64,000 nt of DNA from Chitinophagales bacterium (GTDB taxonomy: Bacteria; Bacteroidota; Bacteroidia; Chitinophagales; LD1), in contig JAEUUZ010000059.1 in the NCBI GenBank assembly GCA_016786765.1, positions 186,001 through 250,000 on the forward strand, in the 5' to 3' direction. Position 1 is the first letter of the stretch; the number at the start of each line of letters is the position of its first letter. Made by a program: the position numbers and the translations under genes. The notes below the pieces were generated by a model. The model was given only the letters and a program-made list of their open reading frames with translations. It was not told where the DNA came from and searched no databases. Positions 1-50,203 of the stretch are shown here, in pieces.

Positions 1-423
1 GGTTATGTTTTGAAAGGTTACTGTTGTTGGCGGACATCCGGCTTTTGGCGAAAAAGAGAAATTAGCAGTGGGCTTACAAAATACTCTTAATGCATTAGGT
101 ACAGTTCTGGTACATGTTTGTCCTGCTGCATTGGTTACCGTTAATGACACAGAATAATCGCCACAAACACTAAATATATAAGCATAGTTATTCGAAAAGC
201 CGAGTGGTAATGTTCCAATAGGGCCGGTAATCGTCCATGTTCTATTGGTAATAGTTGAGGATGAAGTGGAAGCATCGCTCAATACAATGGCTATAGGAGC
301 ACAACCTGAATCTTGTGTAGCTGTAAAATTACAGGTAATTTGTGCTTTTGCTTGGGTTAAACCTAATGCCCCAAAAAACAATATTGTAATGAATCGCAGT
401 ATACTTAATCGAAATTGAATCAT
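1..423 (-). CDS. PKD-domain secreted surface protein, C-terminus beyond window edge
   Basis: The frame is open from an ATG at 423 to base 1, so only the first 141 residues are present. Residues 1-28 form a signal peptide ending in a KAQ-like site (MIQFRLSIL... hydrophobic core ...AKAQ). The following sequence has PKD/Ig-like features: a Cys-rich strand with DSGCAP, then TWTITGP, then GDYSVSLTVTN, then a second unit starting PTANFSFSPKAGCPP. Such domains are common in large T9SS-exported adhesins, but the C-terminal sorting domain that would prove this lies outside the window. It sits upstream of no other gene here and is followed on the same strand's 5' side by porP/sprF and a type B cargo gene, a usual T9SS neighbourhood. 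Function beyond surface protein is unknown. Confidence 0.75.
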   Translation of the reverse strand, partial: MIQFRLSILRFITILFFGALGLTQAKAQITCNFTATQDSGCAPIAIVLSDASTSSSTITNRTWTITGPIGTLPLGFSNNYAYIFSVCGDYSVSLTVTNAAGQTCTRTVPNALRVFCKPTANFSFSPKAGCPPTTVTFQNIT

Positions 424-42094: not shown

Positions 42095-44029
42095 TTAGCG
42101 TTCTCTTCTGAAAATACGCTTACGAATAAATTTCGGACGTCTTTTAACTTCCTCAATAATCTTAGCTTGATATTCGCCAATTACAGCAACAGCCATCATG
42201 TTCAATCCTCCGAAGAAGAGAATTAAAACAATGATTGATGTTATACCATGTGGAATATTACTATTCACAAAGTAGGCTACAATCTGTATGATGATTGCTA
42301 AAAACGAAATTGCGGTAAGTGTTGCTCCAACATAAGTTAGCAATTCCAGCGGCACATAACTAAATGAAAAAATCGCTTTTCTTGCCCAACCGATATTCTT
42401 TCTCCAATTGTTGGTGGTAACGCCAAACATACGCTCCGGACGAACATAATCTACACCAATTTGCTTGAAGCCAACCCATGCTCTCAATCCGCGCATAAAT
42501 TGATCTGTTTCCGGCATTTTCACTAGTTCTTCAACTACTTTTCTATCCATCAACGAGAAATCTCCGGCATCCAAAGGAATCGGAACATATGAGACAGAAC
42601 GAAACACACGATAGAACAATTTGTAGAATAATGCTAACGATTGATTGCCCTCTCTCGCAACACGTCTGCCATAGATTACATCATAGCCTTCTTGGTATTT
42701 CGTGTAGAATTGCTCGATTAATTCAGGCGGGTCTTGTAAATCACCATCCAAAAGAATAACTCCATCTCCTGTAGAAATTTCCATCCCACTTAAAAAGGCC
42801 GCTTGAGAACCAAAGTTTCTAGAATGCTCAATGGCAATAACATGTTCATCTTTGTTGACAATGCGCTGCAACACTTCTGAAGCATTGTCGGGTGAAGCAT
42901 CATTCACGAAAATGATTTCGTAATCCACGCCAATTTTTCGGAAGGTATTCGTCAATCGCTCATACATGTAGGGAACAGCTTCAGCATCCCGATAACAGGC
43001 AATTACAGCCGATAGTTTATGCCGAATTTTATCTTGTACAATCTTTTTTTCATACAAAGGCTTCGCATAATCTTTTTGCCATAAGTAAGTAGCATTTAAA
43101 CCATCTTTTAAACTCGTTTCATTTTGCCATCCTAAAAGCGCTTTAGCTAAATCCGCGTTGCCGTACCAATCTTTTAAGTCCCACTTGCGGTTAGGGAAAT
43201 CACCCCATTCAGGTTCATTCGAAAGATGGAATACATTTTTTATAGTGTTGGCAATTTCTCGAATAGTTGTCTTTGCGCCACTGGCGATATTGATTGACTT
43301 TCCTCTTGTTTTTAGAAAGTCGCTGTTTGCAGATAGTAGCGTAGCATAAACAGTATCATCAATGTAAACAAAATCGCGGGAAATGTCGGGCTGAACTAAT
43401 GGCGGATATATACCCTTCATGCCTTTATCGATGAGTTGCGGAATCAAACGATCCGGTTCTTCAAAAGGTCCGTAAATAGAGTAATAGCGAAGATTCAACA
43501 CCGGCATTTCTTTAATGGTGCCGTAGAACTTAATCATCTGGGCGGCTGCTGCTTTTGTTACAGCATAATGCGAATTGGGTTGCAATGGTGCGTCTTCGTT
43601 TGGAGCAGCACAGTTCAATCCGTACTCCGATGAACTTCCTGCATGAATAAAGGCTTTTATCGAAAACTTGGAGGACAGTTCGAGTAGATTCAGTAGCCCG
43701 ATATAATTAGTTTCGTGAATTAAATCAATATCATCTTGCTTTGAATAGGCACCATAAGCTGCAAGGGTAAAAATGGTTTTGAATTGATGTTCTTCAAACA
43801 ACTGCTCTATATCCGATTTTTTGGTGATGTTGCAATGCAAAATCTTTTTATGATCGCAATCATCTAAACGCCAGGGTATAAAAGGCTTACTCGTAACGGC
43901 AAAAACATCTTGGCGGTATTGCGCAATTTGGCGAAACAAGTTGGCGCCAATAAATCCACCTGCCCCGAAAATCACAATCGGTCCTTGAAGTTTTAAGACT
44001 TCCTCTTGAATTTTTTCTGCTAAAGACAT
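42095..44029 (-). CDS. Fusion of NAD-dependent sugar epimerase/dehydratase and GT2 polyprenyl-phosphate glycosyltransferase
   Basis: One 644-residue protein with two enzymes. Residues ~1-320 are an SDR epimerase/dehydratase: Rossmann motif VIFGAGGFIGANLF, HAGSSSEYG with the catalytic Ser, SHYAVTKAAA with the Tyr/Lys pair, and SRDFVYIDD. Residues ~337-644 are a GT2 enzyme of the GtrB/ArnC/DPM type: LSAVIACYRDAE, FVNDASPDNAS, LLDGDLQDPPELIEQF, and two C-terminal transmembrane helices with a basic tail. So one polypeptide would first modify a sugar nucleotide and then load the sugar on undecaprenyl or dolichyl-like phosphate. There is no stop or frameshift between halves. These two functions are usually separate genes. 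Sugar identity unknown. Confidence 0.88.
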   Translation of the reverse strand: MSLAEKIQEEVLKLQGPIVIFGAGGFIGANLFRQIAQYRQDVFAVTSKPFIPWRLDDCDHKKILHCNITKKSDIEQLFEEHQFKTIFTLAAYGAYSKQDDIDLIHETNYIGLLNLLELSSKFSIKAFIHAGSSSEYGLNCAAPNEDAPLQPNSHYAVTKAAAAQMIKFYGTIKEMPVLNLRYYSIYGPFEEPDRLIPQLIDKGMKGIYPPLVQPDISRDFVYIDDTVYATLLSANSDFLKTRGKSINIASGAKTTIREIANTIKNVFHLSNEPEWGDFPNRKWDLKDWYGNADLAKALLGWQNETSLKDGLNATYLWQKDYAKPLYEKKIVQDKIRHKLSAVIACYRDAEAVPYMYERLTNTFRKIGVDYEIIFVNDASPDNASEVLQRIVNKDEHVIAIEHSRNFGSQAAFLSGMEISTGDGVILLDGDLQDPPELIEQFYTKYQEGYDVIYGRRVAREGNQSLALFYKLFYRVFRSVSYVPIPLDAGDFSLMDRKVVEELVKMPETDQFMRGLRAWVGFKQIGVDYVRPERMFGVTTNNWRKNIGWARKAIFSFSYVPLELLTYVGATLTAISFLAIIIQIVAYFVNSNIPHGITSIIVLILFFGGLNMMAVAVIGEYQAKIIEEVKRRPKFIRKRIFRRER

Positions 44030-44098: not shown

Positions 44099-44641
44099 TC
44101 ACCAATTACTTCTCAATTTCAATTGGTGGATGTGTTCGAAATGGTGTTTTGAGTGCCAAACATAGGACCCAATGATATATTTTACCGACATGCTTTTTTC
44201 ATATTGCGGATGGTAAACGGTTCGTTGTAGTTCGTTTTCATTCAACGATTGAAGAAACATTGCCCAGCGTTGATGTACACCTTCAATCAAACTTAAGGAA
44301 ATGCTAATGACAGGTGATTTTCCATCAATAGTTTCCGACCAATATTGCTCTTTATAGGGTTTAATAGTAGGATTGTTTTCTGTAATGGCCAATTTACAAC
44401 GAATATAGGCATTCATGTGGCTATCGGCTAAATGATGCACCACTTGTGCTACAGTCCAACCATCGGGCCGATAAGTGGTTAATCGTTTCGGTTCATCGAA
44501 ATCTTGAACTAAAGCATTTAGTTGTTGCGGAAAATCAGCAAGCCATTGAATTTGTTCTTGAACTGCTTCTGCAGAAATAGTTTCATCAAAAATAAATTTG
44601 CCAATAGGGAAGCGAAGTTGCTCTAATGCTTCAGCAGTCAT
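44099..44641 (-). CDS. DinB/YfiT-family putative metal-dependent hydrolase or thiol transferase
   Basis: A 180-residue protein of the DinB-like four-helix fold. The metal triad is visible: His in VVHHLADSH and the C-terminal HSKHHFEHIHQL. It opens with LRFPIGKFIFDE, as in YfiT-type proteins, some of which (BstA) transfer bacillithiol to electrophiles. Bacillithiol is known in several Bacteroidota, so that role is possible but not shown. It overlaps the upstream transketolase half gene by four bases (ATGA), so the two are translationally coupled for no obvious reason. Confidence 0.82.
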   Translation of the reverse strand: MTAEALEQLRFPIGKFIFDETISAEAVQEQIQWLADFPQQLNALVQDFDEPKRLTTYRPDGWTVAQVVHHLADSHMNAYIRCKLAITENNPTIKPYKEQYWSETIDGKSPVISISLSLIEGVHQRWAMFLQSLNENELQRTVYHPQYEKSMSVKYIIGSYVWHSKHHFEHIHQLKLRSNW

Positions 44642-45531
44642 TTGTTGATGAGTTTTTGAACGGAATCAAGAAGCGCTGTTCCAGCTAATCCGTTTTCTTC
44701 TTGATGCCAAAGTTGATTGCCATATTTTCCGCTAGGGTAACCTGTTGCGTAAAGTGGTATGTATGTGTTTACTTTATTCCCGTTTTGCAAGAAAAGAGAG
44801 GCTAATGCTTCGTGCATGCCACATTGACCTTGATGTTCTTCAATGGTTAATACTTTCCCGATGGTATTTATTTTGTCACTTAATTCAGTTGGAATATGAT
44901 TGACAGGGAAAATACTCAACAACCATACTTCTAAATCCTTAGCTTCTTCTAACTGCAAGATGTTTTCCAACACCGGTCCGGTGCCAATCACCACACCCTT
45001 TGTACCCTCTTTTATTTTACGCCATTGCTGAAATGGAGTGGTAATGGTCTTTGCCGCCAAGTTCAAACGCAGATAATTAGGGTGTTTATCGGCAATCATC
45101 CACTGAATGGCTTCTCCAACATCAGTTCCATTAAAAGGAATAACAATGCGCATGTTTTGCAACAAACGCAAAGCACCAATATCTTCAATATTATGATGGG
45201 TTGCGCCCATAATTCCATATCCGAAACCTCCACCATTGCCTACAATTTTTACAGGCAAATTGTGTAAACACACATCGTTTCTAATTTGCTCATATGGCCT
45301 AAGGGTTACAAAAGGCGAAATGCTGTAACACCATGGAATAAAACCTTCATGTGCCAATGAGGCCGCTACAGTAATCATGTTTTGTTCTGCAACACCAGCA
45401 TTGATAAAATGCTCGCCAAATGTTACTTGCACTTTTTCTAATGCCATATAGCCTAAGTCTCCGGTGAGGAAAATAAGGTTATTGTGTTCCGTTTTGGCAT
45501 TAATGATTGACTGTGCAAATTCGTTACGCAT
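44638..45531 (-). CDS. Transketolase C-terminal half (pyrimidine-binding and C domains)
   Basis: A 297-residue protein corresponding to only the second half of a transketolase-type thiamine diphosphate enzyme: LTGDLG near the start, GVAEQNMITVAASLA with the catalytic Glu of the pyrimidine domain, a GATHHNIEDIGALR loop with the conserved His, and the C-terminal domain VIGTGPVLENIL and TIEEHQGQCGMHEAL. Split transketolases exist and are usually encoded beside their N-terminal TPP-binding half. No such half is adjacent here: the upstream neighbour is gap and the downstream one is a DinB-like gene. It may pair with a distant partner, often in sugar-building clusters. Start is at an ATG directly upstream of MRNEFAQ. 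Confidence 0.85.
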   Translation of the reverse strand: MRNEFAQSIINAKTEHNNLIFLTGDLGYMALEKVQVTFGEHFINAGVAEQNMITVAASLAHEGFIPWCYSISPFVTLRPYEQIRNDVCLHNLPVKIVGNGGGFGYGIMGATHHNIEDIGALRLLQNMRIVIPFNGTDVGEAIQWMIADKHPNYLRLNLAAKTITTPFQQWRKIKEGTKGVVIGTGPVLENILQLEEAKDLEVWLLSIFPVNHIPTELSDKINTIGKVLTIEEHQGQCGMHEALASLFLQNGNKVNTYIPLYATGYPSGKYGNQLWHQEENGLAGTALLDSVQKLINK

Positions 45532-45644: not shown

Positions 45645-47093
45645 TTAGAAGTAAATATTTCGTCTTACTCCGGCTAAGTGCTTTGCTAATCGCATCACCT
45701 GGCAAGTGTAACCATATTCATTATCGTACCAAGCATAAATCACGATGTTTTGTCCATCTTCCGAAACAATCGTAGCATGACTATCAATTTCACATGCTTG
45801 TGGATTTCCGATTACATCCGATGAAACTAATTCGGCTGACATAGAATAATCAATTTGCTCTACTAAATCGCCATACAATGAAGCGTTTTTCAATAGATTA
45901 TTCAACTCCGCAACGTTTGTTCCTTTTGCAATTTTTAAGTTCAAGATCGCTAAAGATACATTTGGAACAGGAACACGAACTGCATTTGACGTTAATAGTC
46001 CTTGCATATCCGGGAATACTTTTGTTACTGCTTTTCCTGCACCTGTTTCAGTAATTACCATGTTGGTAGGAGCTGAGCGACCTCTTCTTTCTTTTTTGTG
46101 GTAATTATCTAATAAGTTTTGATCGTTGGTAAACGCGTGTACGGTTTCAATATGACCTTTTTCGATGCCGAAGTTTTCTCTAATCACTTTGATAACAGGA
46201 ACGATTGCATTTGTAGTACAACTTGCTGCAGAGAAAATCTGTCCATCACGTCCAGCCTCATATTGTTTGTGATTTACACCGTAAACGATATTAGGAATAT
46301 TGCCTTTGCCCGGTGCAGTCAAAATCACCATGCTAACGCCTTTGGATTTCAAGTGTTCGCTCAAACCTGCCTCATCTCTCCATGCTCCGGTATTATCAAT
46401 TACAATTGCATCGTTAATGCCATATGCAGTGTAATCTACTGATGAAGGCGAAGCGGCAGTAATCATTTGTACTTTATGTCCGTTGATGATGATGCAACCG
46501 CTTTCTTGATCGGCTTCAACAACACCTGCAAATTTTCCGTGAACAGAATCTTTACGTAACAATGATGCTCTTTTTACTAAATCATCCGTTGCTTTATCGC
46601 GCGTAACAATAGCTTTCAAACGCAATTGGTGCCCAGAGCCTGAGTGCTCAATCAAAATTCTTGCCGCTAAACGACCAATACGTCCGAAGCCATATAAAAC
46701 AACATCTCTTGGTTTTAGTTCTTTTGGTTCAGCGTTAATTAACGAATCTAACTTCGTTTTTACAAAGGCATCGTAATCCGGATTTGATCCGTCTTCAATG
46801 TATTCTTTTGATAAACGACCGATATCGATTTTAGCAGGAGCTAAATTTAACTTTTCAATGGCGGAAGTTAGGTTCAATGTTAATTGCACATTGATAGGTA
46901 GCCCGGTGAATTTTACTGCGTATGCGTGGTCGTTGATGATTTCACTTACGCGTTTATCGAATAATTTTCTTCTGAATAGTACTAATTCTACCGAGTTGTT
47001 GAGTTGTAGTTTACTTGCTTTTTCTAAAAGCTCCAAAGTTGCTCGCTCGTTGTTAATCCAGTTGTTAAGCTCCGCTTCGTATCTGTCTGCCAT
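45645..47093 (-). CDS. gap: Glyceraldehyde-3-phosphate dehydrogenase, long Bacteroidota form
   Basis: A 482-residue enzyme of glycolysis/gluconeogenesis. After a ~125-residue N-terminal extension (ELNNWINNERATLELLEKASKL...), the NAD(P) Rossmann motif VVLYGFGRIGRLAARIL appears, then the catalytic Cys in SAASCTTNAIVPV, the HAFTNDQNLLDN segment and WYDNEYGY. The extension is not seen in standard ~335-residue GapA, but a long form of this type is known to me from Bacteroidota. Its role and cofactor preference are uncertain. The gene is followed by a strong terminator. Confidence 0.93.
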   Translation of the reverse strand: MADRYEAELNNWINNERATLELLEKASKLQLNNSVELVLFRRKLFDKRVSEIINDHAYAVKFTGLPINVQLTLNLTSAIEKLNLAPAKIDIGRLSKEYIEDGSNPDYDAFVKTKLDSLINAEPKELKPRDVVLYGFGRIGRLAARILIEHSGSGHQLRLKAIVTRDKATDDLVKRASLLRKDSVHGKFAGVVEADQESGCIIINGHKVQMITAASPSSVDYTAYGINDAIVIDNTGAWRDEAGLSEHLKSKGVSMVILTAPGKGNIPNIVYGVNHKQYEAGRDGQIFSAASCTTNAIVPVIKVIRENFGIEKGHIETVHAFTNDQNLLDNYHKKERRGRSAPTNMVITETGAGKAVTKVFPDMQGLLTSNAVRVPVPNVSLAILNLKIAKGTNVAELNNLLKNASLYGDLVEQIDYSMSAELVSSDVIGNPQACEIDSHATIVSEDGQNIVIYAWYDNEYGYTCQVMRLAKHLAGVRRNIYF

Positions 47094-48182: not shown

Positions 48183-49187
48183 ATGAAGATATCTGCCTCC
48201 ATCTTTGCACAAAATCAAAAAACAATTGATGCGCTTGTGGCTGAACTCCAAAAAATTGGGGTAACGATGTTGCATGTAGATTGGAAGGGAGAAGCAAACG
48301 TTATTGCTTTTTTGGAAGAAAATTTATCGCATCTCACTTTGCCGTTAGATGTGCATTTGATTCATGCGCAACCGCAACAGTTTTTTTCTTCATTATCTGC
48401 CATAAAACCGCAACGTGTTTGTTTGCAGTTTGAGGAAATGAATAGTATTGATTCCGCTTTTTTCAGTTTGCCTGCACTGAAAGGCATGGCGATAACTACA
48501 CAAACACTCATAAGTACATTGGGTTCAGCACTAATAAAGCAATTAGATTTTGTGATGTTGATGTGTACGACTCCCGGTGAAAGTGGCGGAAAATTCCAAA
48601 AAGAGAATTTTCAAAAAATCAATCAACTTAAATACGAATATCCTAACCTATCCATTACTATTGATGGTGGTGTAAATAGTGAAGTGGCCTTTATTCTTCG
48701 TTTGTTAGGGGTAGATACCATTGTTTCCGGCTCCTACCTGATGGATAAAAGCGAGTATGGCGCCAACATGTTGAATTTACTTCGTCCGTATGCCGGAGAA
48801 ACCTTTTGCGTAAAAGATTTTATGGTGAGTAAAGCCTATTTACCAATGCTCAAAACTGGTACATTTAGTTTTAAAGAAGCCGTGCAAAAAATCGAAGATT
48901 ATAAGTCGGGTTACGTTTTGATAGAAGATGAAAATGGCCGATTTTGTGGGATTGTATCGAATGCCGATGTGCGCAAAACTATGTTGAAACATTGGACGAA
49001 TTTAGATGGAATTGCTGAATCCGATTTTGTGAATGCAACACCTTTTTCAGTGAATGAAAATGCGACCGTGCGCGAAATGTTGAAAACGATTGAAGCAATT
49101 GGCAGGGTAATTTTATTTTTACCGGTGATTAATAACAATAATGAACTCACAGGATTAGTGCCTTTGAACAATTTGGCAAAAGGCTAA
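48183..49187 (+). CDS. Divergent ribulose-phosphate 3-epimerase-like domain fused to a CBS pair
   Basis: A 334-residue protein; the ATG at 48183 is preferred since homology begins at MKISASIFAQN and a consensus -7 box lies directly upstream. Residues 1-205 are an RPE-like TIM barrel: metal ligands His31, Asp33 (LHVDW), His58 (LDVHLI) and Asp161 (TIDGGVN) are kept, but MDGxFVPN after Asp33 is replaced by WKGEAN and NPGFGGQ by TPGESGGKF. Residues ~208-334 are two CBS motifs (KDFMVSKAYLPML, YVLIEDENGRFCGIVSNADVRK, LFLPVINNNNELTGLVPL), which usually bind adenine nucleotides. So it may be a nucleotide-regulated epimerase or a related isomerase. Followed by a DAHP synthase 17 bases later. Confidence 0.82.
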   Translation: MKISASIFAQNQKTIDALVAELQKIGVTMLHVDWKGEANVIAFLEENLSHLTLPLDVHLIHAQPQQFFSSLSAIKPQRVCLQFEEMNSIDSAFFSLPALKGMAITTQTLISTLGSALIKQLDFVMLMCTTPGESGGKFQKENFQKINQLKYEYPNLSITIDGGVNSEVAFILRLLGVDTIVSGSYLMDKSEYGANMLNLLRPYAGETFCVKDFMVSKAYLPMLKTGTFSFKEAVQKIEDYKSGYVLIEDENGRFCGIVSNADVRKTMLKHWTNLDGIAESDFVNATPFSVNENATVREMLKTIEAIGRVILFLPVINNNNELTGLVPLNNLAKG

Positions 49188-49204: not shown

Positions 49205-50203
49205 ATGATATTACACTTACATAAAGGAACAACAGAAGAACATGCGCAAACGCTGGCAAAAGAAACGAAAAGCACTATCTCGTTTGATGGGGAAAAATAT
49301 GTTTTGGTGACTTCGTCAAAAGTAAAAGAGGTGCCTGAAATCGCTAAAACATTGGTGTCAGAGTCTTTTGTTACATCATCTGATATTCAATTGGCAAGTA
49401 AAGAATATCAGCAAGCGGTGCGCACTATTCAGCTTAACGATTTTGCTATTGGCGGAACAACTTACAATACCGTAATGATAGCGGGACCTTGTTCCGTAGA
49501 ATCGGAGGAACAGATTGAACAAGCTGCAAAGTTGTGCGTAGAGTTAGGCGTGAAAGTATTGCGTGCCGGGGCATACAAGCCGAGGACATCACCATATACG
49601 TTTCAAGGTTTAGGATTAGACGGATTGAAGTTATTGGCCAAGATGCGCGATAAGTATGGCTTACAAATCATAACGGAAGTGCGCGACAGTACGCATATTG
49701 ACGAAGTAATTGAATATGCCGATATCATTCAAATTGGCGCAAAAGCCATGTACGATCATGGTATATTACGCAAATGCGGAGAAACGAAAAAGCCTGTATT
49801 GTTGAAAAGAGGCTTCGGTACTACATTACAAGAGTTTGTACAAGCGGCAGAATTTATTTTGAGTGGAGGCAATCCCAATGTGATTTTGTGCGAACGCGGT
49901 ATAAGAACCTTTGAAACCAAAACCCGTTTCACACTCGATTTGTGTGGCGTTGCTTGGTTGAAACAATACACGAATTTGCCGGTAATATTGGATCCTAGTC
50001 ATGCTATTGGCTATGCTTATGGAGTGCCTGATTTGGCTAGAGCTTGTGTGGCCATGGGTATTGATGGATTATTGATTGAAACGCATCCAAATCCCAAATT
50101 AGCACAATCGGATGCCGATCAACAATTGAATTTTGATGAATTTAGACATTTATATGCCTCGTTAAATGCAGTAGCTTCGGCTGTTTGCAGAAAGATGGTG
50201 TAA
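49205..50203 (+). CDS. 3-Deoxy-7-phosphoheptulonate (DAHP) synthase, class I-beta
   Basis: A 332-residue enzyme condensing PEP and erythrose 4-phosphate, the first step of aromatic amino acid synthesis. An N-terminal ferredoxin-like domain (~90 residues) precedes the barrel with the motifs MIAGPCSVESEEQI, LRAGAYKPRTSPYTFQG, QIGAKAMYDHGILR, LLKRGFGTT, LCERGIRTF and LDPSHAIG. This is the I-beta form; no chorismate mutase domain is fused. It sits 17 bases behind the RPE-CBS gene. Both substrate pools are linked to the pentose phosphate pathway: RPE output feeds erythrose 4-phosphate, so co-expression makes metabolic sense (inference). Confidence 0.94.
   Translation: MILHLHKGTTEEHAQTLAKETKSTISFDGEKYVLVTSSKVKEVPEIAKTLVSESFVTSSDIQLASKEYQQAVRTIQLNDFAIGGTTYNTVMIAGPCSVESEEQIEQAAKLCVELGVKVLRAGAYKPRTSPYTFQGLGLDGLKLLAKMRDKYGLQIITEVRDSTHIDEVIEYADIIQIGAKAMYDHGILRKCGETKKPVLLKRGFGTTLQEFVQAAEFILSGGNPNVILCERGIRTFETKTRFTLDLCGVAWLKQYTNLPVILDPSHAIGYAYGVPDLARACVAMGIDGLLIETHPNPKLAQSDADQQLNFDEFRHLYASLNAVASAVCRKMV

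What the first reader, a model, noticed from the sequence alone, without database searches (positions are those of the whole stretch)
48183..49187. Ribulose-phosphate epimerase-like barrel fused to a CBS nucleotide-sensing pair
RPE is normally a free housekeeping enzyme. Here the metal ligands H31, D33, H58 and D161 are kept, but the usual MDGxFVPN and NPGFGGQ loops are changed, and a CBS pair follows. With DAHP synthase 17 bases downstream, this looks like an energy-state switch on pentose or erythrose phosphate supply for aromatic synthesis, or a new isomerase.
Basis: partly seen in the sequence, partly recalled or inferred. Interest (0 to 1): 0.58.

Follow-up and report, generated by a model that had tools for sequence, protein, structure and literature searches.

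The report
Likely substitute front end for Kdo

Summary
In detail: window 48183-49187 encodes an intact ribulose-phosphate-epimerase-like barrel fused to a CBS pair, 17 bases before a DAHP-synthase-like gene, and the fusion is conserved. The aromatic "energy switch" reading is not supported.

In 198 genomes of the order, the 45 with the fusion all lack KdsD (arabinose-5-phosphate isomerase) and KdsA (KDO8P synthase); of the 153 others, 134 have KdsA and 125 KdsD. 41 of the 45 keep KdsB. 44 further fusion-bearing genomes, seven of them Gammaproteobacteria, also show no KdsA or KdsD above cut-off. The usual operon is fusion - DAHPS-like - KdsC-like phosphatase; in Thiohalophilus it runs on into a heptosyltransferase and KdsB. 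The CBS pair's best match among solved structures is that of KdsD. The genome has a separate normal rpe.

Best explanation: a non-orthologous replacement of KdsD (fusion) and KdsA (DAHPS-like partner). Distribution and context are shown; the product (most likely arabinose 5-phosphate) is inferred. Main weak point: the partner still looks like a DAHP synthase and is the only type I one in 14 of 39 genomes examined, so it may serve both pathways. No paper found describes this.

The parts
48183..49187 (+). RPE-barrel/CBS fusion (called c0 here), proposed substitute for KdsD
   Evidence: Pfam, alignment, AlphaFold, distribution
48183..48797 (+). barrel domain, residues 1-205
   Evidence: Pfam 2-186; VIA-align model range 1..205 to RPEs
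48795..49184 (+). CBS pair, residues 205-334
   Evidence: Pfam CBS; best PDB hit the KdsD CBS pair 4o9k
48198..48200 (+). codon of S6, active-site serine (role recalled from RPE)
   Evidence: invariant in 37 relatives
48273..48275 (+). codon of H31, metal ligand (role recalled from RPE)
   Evidence: invariant in 37 relatives
48279..48281 (+). codon of D33, metal ligand and acid/base (role recalled from RPE)
   Evidence: invariant in 37 relatives
48354..48356 (+). codon of H58, metal ligand (role recalled from RPE)
   Evidence: invariant in 37 relatives
48663..48665 (+). codon of D161, metal ligand and acid/base (role recalled from RPE)
   Evidence: invariant in 37 relatives
49205..50203 (+). 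DAHP-synthase-like partner (c1), type I-beta with its own clade-specific residues; proposed substitute for KdsA, perhaps still making DAHP
   Evidence: NCBIfam TIGR01361 329 bits over cut-off 267.75; within 400 bp downstream of c0 in 100 of 111 loci; own clade and residues

Best explanation
The fusion (c0) and its partner (c1) replace the first two enzymes of Kdo synthesis. c0 is a metal-dependent sugar-phosphate isomerase or epimerase on an RPE barrel that makes the aldose phosphate for Kdo, most likely D-arabinose 5-phosphate from ribulose 5-phosphate (or ribose 5-phosphate), in place of KdsD. c1, a DAHP-synthase-family enzyme, condenses it with PEP to Kdo 8-phosphate in place of KdsA; it may also still make DAHP where it is the only type I synthase. 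A KdsC-type phosphatase (in the operon of many relatives, not in this window), KdsB and WaaA follow as usual. The CBS pair probably senses a pathway product such as CMP-Kdo. Shown: the domains, the conserved metal site, operon context, mutual exclusion with KdsD and KdsA, retention of KdsB and WaaA. Inferred: substrate, product, direction, CBS ligand.
For: Mutual exclusion: 45 of 198 genomes have c0; 0 of these 45 have KdsA (134 of 153 others do) and 0 have KdsD (125 of 153 do) (tallied in 81; Fisher 1e-29 and 1e-25, which ignores relatedness). 41 of 45 keep KdsB. WaaA in 47 of 51 genomes (45 c0+, 6 c0-). Swaps inside close groups: in genus g3 the c0-less G103, G115, G127 and G137 have KdsD and KdsA; in g2 G007 and G040 do and G145 (c0 split over two frames) does not; also inside family f13. 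G127 keeps the ABC transporter - c1 - PurM gene order with c0 missing and has kdsA-kdsD. Second sample: 44 c0+ genomes (of 80 loci), 7 of them gammaproteobacterial, 0 with KdsA and 0 with KdsD over cut-off. Operon: c1 within 400 bp in 100 of 111 loci, KdsC-like within 2.2 kb in 59 of 111. Thiohalophilus L080: c0, c1, KdsC-like (156 bits, over cut-off), heptosyltransferase, KdsB (304 bits, over cut-off), all overlapping. L090: kdsB, kdsC, lptC, lptA, lptB diverge next to c0. CBS pair: best CBS hit in PDB is the KdsD pair 4o9k (48 bits; 52 bits). KdsB and WaaA trees mix c0+ and c0- within g3 and KdsB shows no consistent active-site change, so both routes seem to feed the same sugar.
Against: c1 passes the DAHPS equivalog cut-off, not that of KdsA, and keeps the DAHPS motif KPRTS. 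In 14 of 39 genomes examined c1 is the only PF00793 protein; 11 of these 14 were in the aroB search and 10 have aroB, so c1 may make DAHP; type II DAHPS was not tested. G007, G040, G127 and G051 have c1 without c0 and with KdsD and KdsA. No c1 was found within 400 bp of c0 in 11 of 111 loci, four of which had under 600 bases of sequence left. KdsC was found in 31 of 51 genomes and not in this one. G087 (100% complete) has KdsB but no c0, KdsA or KdsD. No activity was measured.
Confidence: 0.7

Rival explanations
1. Same operon, different sugar: c0 epimerises erythrose 4-phosphate at C2 to threose 4-phosphate (E4P is ribulose 5-phosphate without C1, with the same spacing from reactive carbon to phosphate), and c1 makes 3-deoxy-D-lyxo-heptulosonate 7-phosphate, a seven-carbon Kdo with the same ring configuration, which KdsB and WaaA then use.
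For: c1 keeps the DAHPS-type motif KPRTS of enzymes that use a four-carbon aldose; c0 keeps the RPE metal site while the substrate loops differ; some Gammaproteobacteria keep a separate KdsC next to KdsB as well as the operon's own phosphatase. The chemistry is my own reasoning.
Against: KdsB and WaaA of c0+ and c0- genomes intermix in trees within one genus and KdsB shows no consistent change (one position, T237, is V in 9 of 20 c0+ and T in 20 of 20 c0-).
Confidence: 0.12
2. c0 serves the aromatic pathway: it feeds or regulates the DAHP synthase beside it.
For: c1 is next to c0 in 100 of 111 loci and looks like a DAHP synthase; a chorismate-binding enzyme follows c1 in L054 and its relative in L056.
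Against: Does not explain why none of 45 plus 44 c0+ genomes has KdsD or KdsA above cut-off, nor KdsC and KdsB in the operon. c1 persists without c0 in G127. Gammaproteobacteria with c0-c1 also have an AroG-like DAHPS.
Confidence: 0.08
3. c0 is a sensor or scaffold without catalysis that controls c1, and arabinose 5-phosphate comes from another, unknown enzyme.
For: 17 genomes of the order have KdsA but neither KdsD nor c0, so unknown A5P sources exist.
Against: All five active-site residues and several phosphate-loop glycines are invariant in 37 relatives down to 25% identity.
Confidence: 0.07

Closest known systems
Ribulose-5-phosphate 3-epimerase (Rpe)
   Same: barrel fold (Z 25), metal site S6/H31/D33/H58/D161, Pfam PF00834
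   Different: 75 bits to TIGR01163 against a cut-off of 212.6; loops changed; CBS pair added; genome has its own canonical rpe
KdsD/KpsF/GutQ arabinose-5-phosphate isomerase
   Same: catalytic domain followed by a CBS pair; the KdsD CBS pair is the nearest in PDB by sequence; same pathway context and complementary distribution
   Different: no SIS domain; the catalytic domain is an RPE barrel
D-allulose-6-phosphate 3-epimerase (AlsE)
   Same: RPE-family barrel acting on another ketose phosphate (3ct7, Z 23.1)
   Different: 40 bits to NF007266 against a cut-off of 271; no CBS pair
DAHP synthase type I-beta (TIGR01361) and KDO8P synthase KdsA (TIGR01362), for the partner c1
   Same: 329 bits to DAHPS (cut-off 267.75); nearest solved structures are DAHP synthases 1vs1, 4grs, 1zco and 1rzm
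   Different: 127 bits to KdsA (cut-off 314); clade-specific K180, Y183, D184, F242, C247 where other I-beta DAHPS of the order have R, Q, N, N, N

Membership tests
Ribulose-5-phosphate 3-epimerase | PF00834 barrel | tested here: met
   85.6 bits, cut-off 21.1; Z 25
Ribulose-5-phosphate 3-epimerase | metal-site residues Ser, His, Asp, His, Asp | tested here: met
   invariant in 37
Ribulose-5-phosphate 3-epimerase | equivalog score TIGR01163 | tested here: not met
   75 bits against 212.6
Ribulose-5-phosphate 3-epimerase | loops MDGxFVPN and NPGFGGQ | tested here: not met
Ribulose-5-phosphate 3-epimerase | 3-epimerase activity | not testable with these tools
   needs protein
KdsD arabinose-5-phosphate isomerase | SIS domain | tested here: not met
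   Pfam lists none in P0001; TIGR00393 matches only its CBS part, 33.7 bits against 203.7
KdsD arabinose-5-phosphate isomerase | C-terminal CBS pair of the KdsD type | tested here: met
   best CBS hit in PDB is 4o9k, over the whole pair; 3k2v and 3fna also hit. Nearness, not proof of descent.
KdsD arabinose-5-phosphate isomerase | place in the Kdo pathway | tested here: met
   mutual exclusion and operons with KdsC and KdsB
KdsD arabinose-5-phosphate isomerase | Ru5P to A5P activity | not testable with these tools
   needs protein
KDO8P synthase KdsA (partner c1) | TIGR01362 score | tested here: not met
   127 bits against 314
DAHP synthase type I-beta (partner c1) | TIGR01361 score and KPRTS motif | tested here: met
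   329 bits against 267.75; KPRTS
DAHP synthase type I-beta (partner c1) | residues conserved in other I-beta DAHPS of the order | tested here: not met
   23 positions differ between the two groups at the thresholds used

The most novel reading that the evidence does not exclude
These bacteria do not make Kdo at all but a seven-carbon analogue, 3-deoxy-D-lyxo-heptulosonate: c0 epimerises erythrose 4-phosphate to threose 4-phosphate, c1 condenses it with PEP, and KdsB and WaaA put it on lipid A. That would be a new inner-core sugar and a second branch from DAHP-synthase chemistry.
Probability: 0.12. Interest if true: 0.92.

Novelty: new variant of a known kind. Interest (0 to 1): 0.78.

Why it matters
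Kdo is usually taken to be made by KdsD and KdsA. If this is right, many environmental Bacteroidota and some Gammaproteobacteria use unrelated or repurposed enzymes for those steps, with a known type of sensor domain on a new catalytic barrel. It would correct the annotation of these genes as ribulose epimerase and DAHP synthase, explain genomes that seem to lack the start of Kdo synthesis, give a new fold for this chemistry, and bear on inhibitors aimed at KdsA and KdsD.

Tried and rejected
Free housekeeping epimerase: rejected, canonical rpe at G000:C14; from the match counts, 40 of the 45 c0+ genomes show a further RPE-family match beside c0.

Chance neighbours: rejected, c1 follows in 100 of 111 loci.

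Parallel pathway beside normal Kdo synthesis: rejected, because KdsD and KdsA were not found in c0+ genomes.

Test that aroB would be missing where c1 is the only type I DAHPS: failed. aroB is in 48 of 51 genomes, in 10 of the 11 c1-only genomes that were in that search, so c1 may be dual.

Test for a changed KdsB in c0+ genomes (which would favour a different sugar): no consistent change in 20 against 20; one c0+ row, L210, was extracted wrongly (41 aa) and was dropped from the tree (39 rows).

Literature: ten searches; [quoted passage not shown] None listed describes, by title or abstract start, an RPE-CBS fusion or a substitute for KdsD and KdsA. The library lacks most subscription journals.

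Rows dropped before counts: A1 holds 37 of 45 c0 proteins (near-duplicates, the split gene L073, the shortened L061 and the insertion-bearing L076 left out). One search used 111 of 125 loci; 14 were left out as duplicates of unnamed-genome loci, judged from contig lengths. One search left out 19 listed c1 rows as near-duplicates or fragments. Searches used 44 of 80 loci; that these 44 do not overlap the 45 was judged from contig lengths only. One search used 39 genomes.

Full report
What is there. Window 48183-49187 (+) encodes a 334-residue protein with a ribulose-phosphate-epimerase barrel (Pfam 85.6 bits) and a CBS pair. It scores far below the rpe equivalog (75 against 212.6 bits), and the genome carries a normal rpe elsewhere (243.6 bits). 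In 37 aligned relatives S6, H31, D33, H58 and D161 are invariant, as are several phosphate-loop glycines; the loops that in Rpe read MDGxFVPN and NPGFGGQ differ. That is the pattern of an active enzyme with a changed substrate. The roles of these residues are recalled from Rpe.

Who has it. A search of 198 genomes of the same order gave full-length relatives in 45 (one of them, G145, split over two frames). A species-wide scan gave 309 stretches; the best 80 come mostly from Bacteroidota, with seven from Gammaproteobacteria, among them the isolate Thiohalophilus thiocyanatoxydans DSM 16326. In the tree of the partner protein the gammaproteobacterial rows form one group (SH-aLRT 98) inside the Bacteroidota rows, which suggests horizontal transfer.

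What lies beside it. The partner (c1, window 49205-50203) follows within 400 bp in 100 of 111 loci, and a KdsC-like phosphatase within 2.2 kb in 59 of 111. In the listing of 80 loci, 46 show a 4-base overlap with the next gene. In Thiohalophilus the operon is c0, c1, KdsC-like, heptosyltransferase, KdsB, all overlapping. In L090 (and by ORF pattern L081 and L099) kdsB, kdsC, lptC, lptA and lptB diverge from it; as I recall, kdsD is the usual neighbour of kdsC there.

The key test. Presence of c0 was set against the Kdo genes in the same 198 genomes. KdsA: 0 of 45 with c0, 134 of 153 without. KdsD: 0 of 45 and 125 of 153. KdsB: 41 of 45. Tally; Fisher p values 1e-29 and 1e-25 ignore relatedness, but both states occur inside genera g2 and g3 and family f13. 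In G103 and G127 kdsD and kdsA lie side by side (coordinates), and G127 keeps c1 in its usual gene order with c0 gone. In a second set of 44 c0+ genomes none has KdsA or KdsD over cut-off; the KdsD matches cover only the CBS part of the profile. WaaA is found in 47 of 51.

The CBS pair. A profile of the family, and one of its CBS pair alone, find the KdsD CBS pair 4o9k as best CBS hit among solved structures (48 and 52 bits). Its title is cut at 'in com'; I recall that it holds CMP-Kdo. So the pair probably senses a product of the Kdo pathway rather than energy charge. This is inference.

The partner. c1 is a clade of its own among type I-beta DAHP synthases, with 23 group-specific positions, among them K180, Y183 and D184 after the conserved QIGA. 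It keeps KPRTS and passes the DAHPS cut-off. Its near solved relative 1zco is, as I recall, the Pyrococcus furiosus enzyme that can also use A5P and R5P. In 14 of 39 genomes c1 is the only type I member (G091, G015, G056, G067, G003, G024, G037, G050, G062, G030, G043, G210, G228, G229). The first 11 were in the aroB search and 10 of them have aroB (all but G056). So c1 may make both DAHP and Kdo 8-phosphate, or a type II enzyme, not tested, makes DAHP. Gammaproteobacteria with c0-c1 also have an AroG-like enzyme (6 of 7 by a full match, the seventh by a fragment).

Which sugar. If c0+ bacteria used another sugar, KdsB and WaaA should differ. In genus g3 their trees mix c0+ and c0- genomes with support (KdsB: G127 with G160, 98/84; WaaA: G127 with G160 and G109, 100/99), and KdsB shows no consistent change apart from T237, V in 9 of 20 c0+. 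This favours Kdo itself, hence A5P. A C7 analogue through threose 4-phosphate stays possible.

Against. G087 has KdsB but none of the others; KdsC was found in 31 of 51 and not in this genome; some c0 genes lack c1 beside them; c1 occurs without c0 in four KdsA+ genomes; G145 has a split c0. Nothing has been measured.

Verdict.

Noticed in passing
genomes G018, G032, G045, G058, G069, G070, G080, G094, G100, G106, G110, G112, G113, G114, G135, G150, G179 (order sample): 17 genomes have KdsA but neither KdsD nor the fusion, ten of them in family f18; they need some other source of arabinose 5-phosphate.
   Followed up: no
G087 (order sample, 100% complete): KdsB present but no KdsA, KdsD or fusion found.
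   Followed up: no
window 42095-44029 (-): One protein joins an NAD-dependent sugar-nucleotide epimerase/dehydratase half to a PgfS/ArnC-like membrane glycosyltransferase half.
   Followed up: partly
window 44638-45531 (-): Stand-alone C-terminal half of a transketolase/Dxs-like enzyme; its partner half was not looked for.
   Followed up: no
window 45645-47093 (-): 482-residue glyceraldehyde-3-phosphate dehydrogenase of the long type PRK08289 (675.7 bits) with about 130 residues before the usual domain.
   Followed up: no
L076:6619-7893: A fusion protein with a long low-complexity insert between barrel and CBS pair.
   Followed up: no
G145:C36:9650-10656: The fusion is split over two frames, a broken gene or a sequencing error, in a genome without KdsA and KdsD.
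   Followed up: no
G103:C26, G137:C9 and G127:C20: KdsD there is a short form matching only the SIS half of the profile, without CBS pair, next to kdsA.
   Followed up: no
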